Positions 55,699 through 61,508 of a DNA stretch of 64,000 bases are shown here, one piece after another (the stretch's first letter is position 1; the number at the start of each line of letters is the position of its first letter). The DNA is taken from assembly GCA_016208305.1 (NCBI GenBank), contig JACQYI010000009.1, positions 558,001 to 622,000 on the forward strand, given 5' to 3'. This DNA is from Oscillatoriophycideae cyanobacterium NC_groundwater_1537_Pr4_S-0.65um_50_18. GTDB lineage: Bacteria; Cyanobacteriota; Cyanobacteriia; Elainellales; Elainellaceae. The notes under the pieces were generated by a model. That model worked only from the letters and a program-made list of their open reading frames with translations. It was not told the origin of the DNA and did no database searches. The position numbers and the translations under genes were made by a program.

Positions 55699-56397
55699 AT
55701 GACCGCAACCGATAATAAAACAGACGATAAGACGATCGTTCGAGAATATTTCAACGCTACAGGCTTCGATCGCTGGCGACGAATCTACGGCGATGGCGAA
55801 GTTAACAAAGTTCAGCTTGATATTCGAGTCGGGCATCAAAAAACGGTTGATACAGTCCTAAGCTGGCTCGAAGCAGACGGCAATTTGGCAGGCTTGTCTA
55901 TTTGTGATGCTGGGTGCGGGGTCGGTAGCCTGAGTATTCCCCTTGCGACCGCAGGCGCACAGGTGTTTGCCAGCGATATCTCTGAAAAGATGGTATCTGA
56001 AGCTCAAGAACGCGCTCAGGCTGTTTTGGGACAAAGCCACAACCCGGCTTTTGCCGTTCAAGATCTGGAAACATTAAGCGGCAAGTACCATACGGTGATT
56101 TGTCTGGATGTGCTGATTCACTACCCAGACGACAAGGCTGCTGAAATGATTAGCCATCTGTCTTCTTTGGCAGAAACAAGGCTTATCCTCAGCTTTGCCC
56201 CCAAAACTCTGGCCTATACGCTGCTCAAAAAAATTGGCGATTTTTTCCCTGGCCCTAGCAAAGCTACACGAGCCTATTTGCACCCTGAAGCCAAAATTGT
56301 CAAGATTCTAGAATCTAACGGCTGGAAGGTGCAGCGTAACGCCATGACCAAAACCCAATTTTACTTCTCTCGATTGCTGGAAGTGACGCGATCGTAG
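55699..56397 (+). CDS. chlM: Magnesium-protoporphyrin IX O-methyltransferase
   Basis: 232 residues, normal for ChlM. It methylates Mg-protoporphyrin IX with SAM in chlorophyll synthesis. The opening REYFNATGFDRWRRIYGDGEVNKVQLDIR is diagnostic, then the SAM site LSICDAGCGVGSLSIPLA, SDISEKMVSEA, VICLDVLIHYPDDKAAEM and LSFAPKTLAYTLLKKIGDFFP. Monocistronic, downstream region full of repeats. Confidence 0.95.
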   Translation: MTATDNKTDDKTIVREYFNATGFDRWRRIYGDGEVNKVQLDIRVGHQKTVDTVLSWLEADGNLAGLSICDAGCGVGSLSIPLATAGAQVFASDISEKMVSEAQERAQAVLGQSHNPAFAVQDLETLSGKYHTVICLDVLIHYPDDKAAEMISHLSSLAETRLILSFAPKTLAYTLLKKIGDFFPGPSKATRAYLHPEAKIVKILESNGWKVQRNAMTKTQFYFSRLLEVTRS

Positions 56398-56510: not shown

Positions 56511-56770
56511 CAAGAAGATGTTTGAAAAGTGTTCGGCTGTGACTTTAGGCACCTGTTGATCCCCTGTCCCCTTAAAAAGAGCTACCCTGTACACACATTT
56601 CCGATAAAGTATCCAAGTGCTGCAAGATCCCCCTAAATCCCCCTTAAAAAGGGGGACTTTGAGTCCGGCTCCTCCCTTTTTAAGGGGGGTTGGGGGGATC
56701 AAACCCAGTTAGTTCTGCATCAAAGGATTTGTGGGTGCACGGTAGTTAAAAAGAAGGGCGAAATGAATTC
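56511..56770 (+). repeat. Dispersed repeat, interrupted copy
   Basis: 56511-56579 matches 61182-61250 (CAAGAAGATGTTTGAAAAG, GGCACCTGTTGATCCCC, CCCCTTAAAAAG), and the match resumes at GCGAAATGAATTCA (56759) against GAGAAATGAATTCA (61254). The segment between is absent at 61182-61268. Confidence 0.78.
56581..56745. mobile_element. MITE-like element, 164 bp, with target duplication
   Basis: The ends CTACCCTGTACACACATTTC (56582 on) and the reverse complement of the other end, CTACCGTGCACCCACAAATC, match at most positions over about 21 bp. TTAAAAAGA stands on both sides (56572-56580 and 56746-56754) as a 9-bp target duplication. It has no ORF; inside is a palindrome with arms 56626-56653 and 56674-56700 rich in C-runs and CTTAAAAAGGG, a dispersed cyanobacterial repeat motif. 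Confidence 0.78.
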
Positions 56771-56979
56771 AAAGCCTCCCTTCAAATGGGGAACTTAGGG
56801 GGATCTGAAACGTTTCGCTACCCCTAGTTGGACTGTTCAAACATTCTCTCAGAGCGTGCGGCAGAGCCGTACTCTCTCTAAAAAACCTTGAAGTTATTTT
56901 CGTGAAGATCTTTTCCGTTCAGCTCAGCTAAAAGCGAGGTGGTCATCGAACTCATGAGCAAGAACTGCGGATAAAACCT

Positions 56980-57993
56980 ATGGCTAAAAACAAGATTGCA
57001 ATCCTTTGCCTCGTTGCGATTATTGCAGCCGCAATTATTTTGCACACCGAATTATGGGCCTACGACACATTTGAAGGCAAAAAAGATATCTACTATCTTT
57101 GGCAAGATAGCCAGATGCTTTCATCTGGAGAAAATCCTTATGCCAGGATTTTGTCAGGGAACATGTCGGAGAACAAAAAATATCCTACCTACTTTCCTAT
57201 ATTCTGCTTGCTTTCTTCACTGACGCAAAAGCTAGGACTTAAAGACTATGACGACTGGATTGGCTTTTGGCGACATATCTTTTTAGTTTTTAATCTAGGC
57301 ATTGGTTCACTAATCTTCTACATTTTCTCTCGGCAAAAGCTTGTATTACTGGGGGCTTTTTCGGCCTGCTTTTGGCTGTTTAGCCGTTGGACAATGTATG
57401 TCACAAGAGTAGCGCAAATAGACTTTATTCCTATCTTCTTTTTGCTGCTTTCGCTGTTTCTATTGCGGCGACATAAATGGACGGCACTCTTGCTGTTTAG
57501 CCTATCTCTGGGTGTCAAACAAATTGCCGTCTTTCTGGTGCCCATTTATCTGGTTTGGATCTGGCGATCGACCGAACAAAACAAAGTTAAAACCGTTTTG
57601 TTGGCTGCTGCTATGATCATCAGCATTCCCCTGATCACATCTCTCCCCTTTTTGGTCTGGAATCCAGAAAGCTTCGTCAAATCCATTCTCTTCTCTGCCA
57701 CTCGCGAAGGAGACGACAGCTTTGACTCCCCCAGCTTATTTGAAGCCACAGCAGGTCTGCGCTTTTTACCGATGCTGGTGCTGACGACTCTTATTTGCTT
57801 TGGCATTGTTCGTCAGCAGATAGGGCTTTATACCAGTGCGCTGCTTACCTTGTCGGTCTTTGTCAACTTCAATGCTGTGCTGTTTACCCAATACTTTTGC
57901 TGGGTGCTGCCTTTTGTACCGTTGACCCTCAGCGATTTTTTCGATCGCTCCTCGACGCTTGACGCGCAAAAAGACCTGCCTGAAAACCTGTGA
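56980..57993 (+). CDS. Multi-pass membrane protein, GT87/DUF2029-like
   Basis: 337 residues with about nine hydrophobic segments. After the first (IAILCLVAIIAAAIILHTEL) comes an exported loop with DIYYLWQDSQMLSSGENPYA and YPTYFPIFCLLSS, typical of GT-C membrane glycosyltransferases of family GT87 (DUF2029) that use lipid-linked sugars. LFSRWTMYVTRVAQIDFIPI and SLGVKQIAVFLVPIYLVWIW fit too. Donor and acceptor are unknown. Length is a little short for the family. Confidence 0.6.
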   Translation: MAKNKIAILCLVAIIAAAIILHTELWAYDTFEGKKDIYYLWQDSQMLSSGENPYARILSGNMSENKKYPTYFPIFCLLSSLTQKLGLKDYDDWIGFWRHIFLVFNLGIGSLIFYIFSRQKLVLLGAFSACFWLFSRWTMYVTRVAQIDFIPIFFLLLSLFLLRRHKWTALLLFSLSLGVKQIAVFLVPIYLVWIWRSTEQNKVKTVLLAAAMIISIPLITSLPFLVWNPESFVKSILFSATREGDDSFDSPSLFEATAGLRFLPMLVLTTLICFGIVRQQIGLYTSALLTLSVFVNFNAVLFTQYFCWVLPFVPLTLSDFFDRSSTLDAQKDLPENL

Positions 57994-61125: not shown

Positions 61126-61508
61126 GATCATGCAACAAATAACCTGCGTAGGTTGGATTTCGCAAAGCTCAACCCAACGCCCAAGAGGATGTTTGAAAAG
61201 CAATCGACTGTGATTTTAGGCACCTGTTGATCCCCCTTGCCCCTTAAAAAGGGGAGAAATGAATTCACAGCGAAACCCAACGCCTGAGATAATTGGGTTT
61301 CATTTATATTGATCGTCCTTGCCTTAAAGACAGGGGCGATCGAGCCATTGGAATTTTCTAGTGGCTCGGTGTTTGTAAGGCTACGGCTAGAATGAGGGAT
61401 GCATTTTTGAGGGGTGTGCGAAGCGTTCCTGTCAAAAATGAATTTAAATCCCTGGCAGAGTTATGATGGGGCAAATTTGATCCAGACTCAATCTCCGAAC
61501 CCCTCAGA
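61126..61508. other. Intergenic region with dispersed repeats
   Basis: GTAGGTTGGATTTCGCAAAG followed by CTCAACCCAACGCC (about 61148-61181) and GAAACCCAACGCC with GGGTTTCATT (about 61270-61305) are inverted-repeat sequences of a motif very common between genes of cyanobacteria. 61182-61268 is the uninterrupted copy of the repeat at 56511. A moderate promoter for upp must lie in the last 150 nt. Confidence 0.6.
61182..61268 (+). repeat. Dispersed repeat, intact copy
   Basis: Matches 56511-56579 and continues into GAGAAATGAATTCAC without the insertion found there, so it shows what the empty site looks like. Contains CCCCTTAAAAAGGGG, a short palindrome. Confidence 0.78.

What the first reader, a model, noticed from the sequence alone, without database searches (positions are those of the whole stretch)
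56511..56770. Nested MITE with 9-bp target duplication, and the empty site present 4.6 kb away
A 164-bp element with imperfect 21-bp terminal inverted repeats (CTACC-TG-AC-CACA pattern) is bounded by TTAAAAAGA on both sides. It splits a dispersed repeat whose uninterrupted copy is at 61182-61268. This gives direct evidence for a past transposition, with a before/after comparison within one window. The transposase that moves it is not here.
Basis: seen in the sequence. Interest (0 to 1): 0.62.

Follow-up and report, generated by a model that had tools for sequence, protein, structure and literature searches.

The report
Mini-transposon nested in another mini-transposon
A 164-base mobile DNA fragment, apparently in a cyanobacterium, has jumped into the hairpin of another small mobile fragment; relatives of it, moved by a Tn5-like enzyme, often land on such hairpins, so these elements pile up inside one another.

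Summary
56582-56745 is a 164-bp MITE (CTACC...GGTAG ends) inside a second MITE, 56514-56848. The duplication is better read as 10 bp with one mismatch (TTAAAAAGAG/TTAAAAAGAA) than 9 bp. With the insert and one duplication removed, the outer element aligns along its length with uninterrupted copies; at least 30 copies match in one piece in the genome, and the copy 4.6 kb away is truncated.

The inner MITE's ends match an IS4-family insertion sequence on contig C19 of the same genome (perfect ends and 10-bp duplication; transposase broken by a stop) and open-frame relatives in cyanobacteria; the nearest solved structure is Tn5 transposase. The outer MITE has TNA duplications (48 of 63 copies) and IS5-like ends.

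The nest is not one lucky event. Of 14 inner-MITE loci found by an end search of this genome, 13 adjoin an outer element and one lies in another hairpin core. Both orientations and several registers occur. At 45 distinct target sites the duplication tends to sit on the axis of an interrupted palindrome. This resembles REP-targeting ISRm22. The least usual part is a 74-77 bp hairpin core shared by three element types with unrelated ends.

The parts
56582..56745 (+). Inner MITE (IE), 164 bp, ends CTACC...GGTAG, no ORF of 100 aa or more
   Evidence: Sequence; ORF list; same kind of ends as the IS on contig C19 and other copies
56572..56581 (.). Left target duplication TTAAAAAGAG
   Evidence: 9 of 10 match with 56746-56755; duplications in the family mostly 10-11 bp
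56746..56755 (.). Right target duplication TTAAAAAGAA
56626..56700 (.). 75-bp hairpin core GATCCCCC...GGGGGATC inside the inner MITE; 84-89% identical to cores of five sampled elements with other ends
   Evidence: RNA fold of 56582-56701 z = -6.0
56514..56848 (+). Outer MITE (OE), ends GAAGATGTTTGAAAAG / CTGTTCAAACATTCTC (family GAGGATGTTTGAAAAG), interrupted by the inner MITE
   Evidence: family TNA duplications in 48 of 63 two-ended copies
61184..61270 (+).
   Evidence: query 1-89 of 171; alignment
55699..56397 (+). Upstream ORF, 232 aa (read as a magnesium-protoporphyrin-type methyltransferase; name from recall, not searched)
56980..57993 (+). Downstream ORF, 337 aa (read as a membrane glycosyltransferase-like protein; name from recall, not searched)

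Best explanation
A non-autonomous MITE with the ends of an IS4-family, Tn5/IS50-like insertion sequence transposed into the hairpin core of an older IS5-type MITE and duplicated about 10 bp of target. The transposase would have been supplied in trans by a relative of the IS on contig C19. Its target preference is the loop and inner arms of short G+C-rich interrupted palindromes. The outer MITE's core (CCCCTTAAAAAGGGG) is such a site, so insertion there is recurrent rather than accidental. Shown: ends, duplications, empty sites, the matching IS, differing orientations and registers, palindrome symmetry of targets. Inferred: mobilisation in trans, and that the transposase itself (not host DNA structure or selection against other sites) sets the preference.
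For: IS with two perfect 16-bp ends 1478 bp apart at C19 and a perfect 10-bp duplication GACCTAGAGG. Its transposase pieces match NCBIfam IS4 family NF033590 (E 1.5e-42 and 6.6e-63; only the second piece is over the cut-off). ORFs of 425-442 aa in four relatives with the same or similar ends (L084 lacks the usual C-terminus). D-D-E with Y(2)R(3)E(6)K spacing; the PDB matches are all Tn5 transposase or its inhibitor, best E 7.9e-45. After removing repeats, 68 distinct elements: 45 have a duplication of 8 bp or more with at most one mismatch (10 bp 25, 11 bp 14, 9 bp 5, 8 bp 1); mean matches over 10 bp 6.4 against 3.8 (highest 4.4) in 1000 partner shuffles. In the own genome 13 of 14 MITE loci from the end search lie by an outer-element end, 9 of them between two such ends; the 14th is in another hairpin core. 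Among 7 near-full-length copies 3 share the outer element's orientation and 4 are opposite, in several registers, by my reading. Palindrome pairing about the duplication centre at the 45 sites: 181 of 315 (0.575) against 0.324 at random centres, 0 of 10000 draws reach it; without the 9 core-like sites 135 of 252, 0 of 10000.
Against: The near-complete IS in this genome has an in-frame stop and its N-terminal part appears to lie in another frame, so present activity is not shown. The C19 IS sits in a target with weak symmetry (2 of 9 pairs), and other targets score as low (L109 1, L112 2, L197 1, L206 0 of 9). 23 of 68 distinct elements show no clear duplication and were left out of the palindrome test, two of the window genome's own nested copies (L003, L008) among them; 3 had short flanks and 6 were repeats. 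My first version of the test (48 sites) counted some sites twice; the mended figures are slightly weaker. The window copy's duplication is imperfect and about 2 bp off the palindrome axis. In one of four transposases the second D is E (L081).
Confidence: 0.9

Rival explanations
1. The nested pair was copied as one composite by the outer element's transposase, so the many nested copies trace to one insertion.
For: Nested copies are dispersed; two same-orientation copies share a register (L002, L003), and these two outer elements keep matching TAA flanks.
Against: Both orientations and several duplication registers occur among 7 near-full-length copies; at least 30 outer copies match in one piece without the insert. 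Some copying of composites alongside is not excluded.
Confidence: 0.05
2. The inner element entered by homologous recombination or template switching between the shared hairpin cores, not by transposition.
For: Window inner core and sampled outer cores are 88-89% identical, and half-elements with an inner end on one side only look like products of core-core recombination (L005, L009, L014-L016).
Against: Recombination does not make 10-11 bp direct duplications flush with the ends; both ends are present here.
Confidence: 0.04
3. Apparent targeting is survivorship: insertions elsewhere are removed by selection and hairpin repeats are neutral intergenic landing ground.
For: The window copy is intergenic; the C19 IS lies between two pieces of what reads as one protein (aldo/keto reductase by recall), so other sites can be hit.
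Against: Intergenic location alone would not centre the duplication on the palindrome axis; pairing drops from 0.575 at the centre to 0.43-0.45 half a base away and 0.31-0.32 at three bases.
Confidence: 0.15

Closest known systems
ISRm22 of Sinorhizobium meliloti (IS4 family), REP-targeting (PMC1525189, passages seen)
   Same: IS4 family; its copies lie in palindromic repeats, with the insertion point at the axis of palindromy
   Different: A full IS with 6-bp repeats reported there, placed in subgroup IS4Sa (PMC2266710 passage); here duplications are mostly 10-11 bp, ends are Tn5-like, many copies are MITEs, and targets are varied hairpins including other MITEs
IS50/Tn5 (IS4 family, subgroup IS50; PMC2266710 passages)
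   Same: Transposase best PDB match; end consensus CW------Y---CA-A--W- fits CTACCGTGTACACACAAGTC; 20 of 22 two-ended IS copies are 1350-1550 bp; PMC1525189 says Tn5 sites are often palindromic
   Different: Duplications mostly 10-11 bp instead of 8-9 bp; stronger palindrome symmetry than I recall for Tn5
IS231 subgroup (IS231A, target GGG-N5-CCC, from recall)
   Same: IS4 family, 10-12 bp duplications, target with symmetric G/C arms (recall)
   Different: Ends begin CAT, not CTAC
IS5-type MITEs with TNA duplications (outer element; IS5 and TNA link from recall)
   Same: 48 of 63 two-ended copies have identical 3-bp flanks, all 48 TNA; a 909-bp element with similar ends (2 and 1 mismatches of 16), TTA on both sides and a PF13340 ORF is in relative G014
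   Different: No autonomous partner was identified in the window's own genome (its 2 PF13340 loci lack these ends)

Membership tests
IS4 family (autonomous partner) | D(60-110)D(100-150)E and Y(2)R(3)E(6)K motifs, single ORF | tested here: met
   four relatives: D51, D155, E296; Y289 R292 E296 K303 (numbering of L080); spacings 103 and 140. D155 is D in 3 of 4 and E in L081. Single ORFs of 425-442 aa. The C19 copy itself is broken
IS4 family (autonomous partner) | Target duplication of about one helix turn (about 10 bp) | tested here: met
   10 or 11 bp in 39 of the 45 clear cases among 68 distinct elements (23 unclear); perfect 10 bp for the C19 IS
IS50 subgroup of IS4 | End consensus CW------Y---CA-A--W- and size 1350-1550 bp | tested here: met
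   CTACCGTGTACACACAAGTC fits every fixed position (consensus); 20 of 22 two-ended IS copies in size range
IS50 subgroup of IS4 | Direct repeats of 8-9 bp | tested here: not met
   8-9 bp in only 6 of 45 clear cases; so not filed in IS50, only IS50-like
MITE | Short, non-coding, shares TIRs and duplication length with an autonomous IS, several copies | tested here: met
   164 bp; 14 loci in the genome; same kind of ends as the C19 IS
MITE | Mobilised in trans by the IS transposase | not testable with these tools
   Needs a transposition assay
IS5-type MITE (outer element) | 3-bp TNA duplication and shared ends with an IS5-type element | tested here: met
   48 of 63; G014 element L313. The window copy itself does not show a clean TNA pair flush with its ends

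The most novel reading that the evidence does not exclude
A portable 74-77 bp hairpin cassette is shared by at least three cyanobacterial MITE types with unrelated ends (Tn5/IS4-like, IS5-like and a CAGTAGATC type). It is a preferred landing pad of the Tn5-like transposase and is exchanged by core-core recombination, so that each new element carries the target for the next and nests grow by themselves.
Probability: 0.35. Interest if true: 0.6.

Novelty: new variant of a known kind. Interest (0 to 1): 0.45.

Why it matters
It gives a within-genome record of repeated, apparently independent insertions into the same hairpin, with many empty sites for comparison. That makes target choice by Tn5-like transposases testable with natural data: Tn5 is a standard laboratory tool whose preference is weak as far as I recall, and a hairpin-preferring relative would be a useful contrast. 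It may also help explain why cyanobacterial intergenic DNA holds many similar GC-rich palindromes: different mobile elements carry one core and insert into it.

Tried and rejected
Composite spread and recombination as sole explanations: rejected by orientation, register and duplications. A pattern search with two mismatches in the own genome is near noise: 98 hits against 80 for the reversed control; only hits with at most one mismatch were used (25 hits, 20 loci: 14 MITE loci, 2 IS loci, 4 lone end-like matches without an outer end, L055, L059, L061, L062, not examined further). That end search misses decayed copies: L009, L012, L016, L167 and L168 also hold inner-element sequence by similarity. 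A gap pattern N{60,90} matched 1 of 11 genomes; N{110,140} matched 11 of 20. Palindrome test: the first version was mended for repeated sites. Corresponding locus: in G003 the methyltransferase and glycosyltransferase genes lie on different contigs; their flanks show no inner end or core, and four weak outer-end-like matches (2-3 mismatches in 13, two per flank) did not look like an element by eye; a 1000-base stretch of G002 showed none. So no clean orthologous empty site was obtained. Pfam gave only DDE_Tnp_1 for the transposase. The terminator scan was little above shuffles (2 found, mean 1.0). Inverted repeats by the truncated copy gave nothing of use. Literature: the listings showed no title or abstract start describing this element, and four sequence strings were found in 0 papers. 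Most subscription papers are not in that library; the work I recall on very small mobile repeats in cyanobacteria and on Nezha was not read. Passages only were seen of PMC2266710, PMC1525189, PMC4692102, PMC4666352 and PMC10969869; all others only in search listings.

Full report
What is there. The window is part of a 6.94-Mb draft genome of 85 contigs (G000:C41:558001-622000). Between an ORF ending at 56397 and one starting at 56980 lies an element of 164 bp (56582-56745) with ends CTACCCTGTACACACA and, on the other strand, CTACCGTGCACCCACA. It is flanked by TTAAAAAGAG and TTAAAAAGAA. It lies in a second element, 56514-56848, with ends near GAGGATGTTTGAAAAG. Joining the flanks with one duplication kept gives a sequence that aligns along its length with uninterrupted copies, and over 92 alignment columns with the truncated copy at 61184-61270.

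Copies. A search with 260 bases found 91 matches in the genome, many of them of the core alone. A search with the inner end alone, independent of the outer element, gave 25 hits with at most one mismatch at 20 loci: 14 loci with the MITE, 2 with the IS (C19, and a remnant on C82) and 4 lone matches. Of the 14 MITE loci, 13 are near an outer-element end, 9 of them between two such ends; the 14th (C41:252185) lies in a core next to CAGTAG-type sequence. A search with one outer element gave 30 matches over nearly the full length in one piece, the query among them and some with small inserts (my count, in which 40 of 92 candidates were scored, so a lower bound).

Independence. Of seven near-full-length inner copies in this genome (L001-L004, L006-L008), three have the same orientation relative to the outer element as the window and four the opposite, by my reading (L007 is judged from one outer end). 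The duplications, in outer-element orientation, include TTAAAAAGAR, CCTTMAAAAG, CTTAAAAAGG, CCTTAAAAAGG and CTTCAAAAGGG. One ancestral nest cannot give this. Half-copies, with one inner end and the rest replaced by outer sequence (L005, L009, L014-L016), look like later recombination between the cores.

The transposase. C19 holds a 1478-bp IS with the same kind of ends (both CTACCGTGTACACACA) and a perfect 10-bp duplication. Its transposase is in two open pieces parted by a TGA, and the expected N-terminus seems to be in another frame. Four relatives carry ORFs of 425-442 aa with the same or similar ends; L084 lacks the usual C-terminus and L081 has E for the second D. NCBIfam assigns IS4 family, the motif spacing fits and the best solved structure is Tn5 transposase. 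The end consensus fits the IS50 subgroup of PMC2266710, but the duplication length does not, so I call it IS50-like and do not file it there.

Target. Of 77 elements, 3 had short flanks and 6 repeated another site, which leaves 68; 45 of these have a duplication of 8 bp or more with at most one mismatch, 39 of them 10 or 11 bp, and 23 have none that is clear. At the 45 sites, pairing of bases placed symmetrically about the duplication centre is 181 of 315 (0.575), against 0.43-0.45 half a base off and 0.31-0.32 three bases off. In 10000 draws of random centres none reached it. Without the 9 core-like sites 135 of 252 remain paired and none of 10000 reach it. Letter shuffles of the earlier, slightly larger set gave 0.24. 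Examples are ctcccctccCCTTAGCAAGGggaggggat (L270, Scytonema) and accccttctCCCAAAGCGGGagaagggga (L262, Kaiparowitsia). Several targets show little or no symmetry (L206 0, L109 1, L197 1, L041 2 of 9). In some copies the two flanks are arms of a palindrome without a clear duplication (L084 and L266, the same site); I cannot explain these. Elements also nest in their own family, by my reading (L199, L209).

The outer element. Of 63 two-ended copies in all fetched sequence, 48 have identical 3-bp flanks, all 48 of the form TNA. A 909-bp element in relative G014 has similar ends, TTA on both sides and a PF13340 ORF. That supports an IS5-type origin; the partner was not found in the window's own genome.

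The core. Inner MITE, outer MITE and a third type with CAGTAGATC ends (L298, L301; ends read by eye, duplications not tested) share a 74-77 bp hairpin core. Window core against the others: 0.89 (L019), 0.89 (L289), 0.88 (L305), 0.84 (L298), 0.84 (L301). The 40-bp flanks are 0.45-0.57, near the level of 0.44 (highest 0.57) for a shuffled core. The two stretches folded, each with a core, fold strongly (z -6.0 and -5.2). How unrelated MITEs came to share it (insertion of a core element, recombination, or selection for a terminator-like hairpin) is open.

Known or new. IS4-family elements that insert at the axis of palindromic repeats are known (ISRm22, PMC1525189 passages), and MITEs in cyanobacteria are known (PMC10969869 passages). 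New here, as far as the searches named go, is the combination: a Tn5-like MITE family that lands on hairpins of other MITEs, repeatedly and in both orientations, and a core shared across MITE types. That makes it a new variant of a known kind.

Noticed in passing
L298, L301 (relative G003); L073 around 1126-1186 (own genome C41): A third element type with CAGTAGATC-like ends carries the same hairpin core; in L073 the inner MITE seems inserted in or beside such an element.
   Followed up: partly
L003, L009, L012, L028, L011: Small inserts (GCGC...GCTAGAAAAAA and GGCGAAGCCTTCCCGAAGGGTAG types) sit in arms of the cores, like the small dispersed repeats I recall from cyanobacteria; a further level of nesting.
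   Followed up: no
G045 (relative, same family): 89 exact copies of the inner-type end CTACNGTGTACACACA, the most of the 60 genomes searched.
   Followed up: partly
L084 736-2131 and L266 1206-2601 (the same site): IS copy whose two flanks are complementary palindrome arms instead of direct repeats.
   Followed up: no
L071 959-2436 (G000:C19:10958-12435): The IS lies between two pieces of what I read as one aldo/keto reductase gene (name from recall), so not all insertions are in repeats.
   Followed up: no
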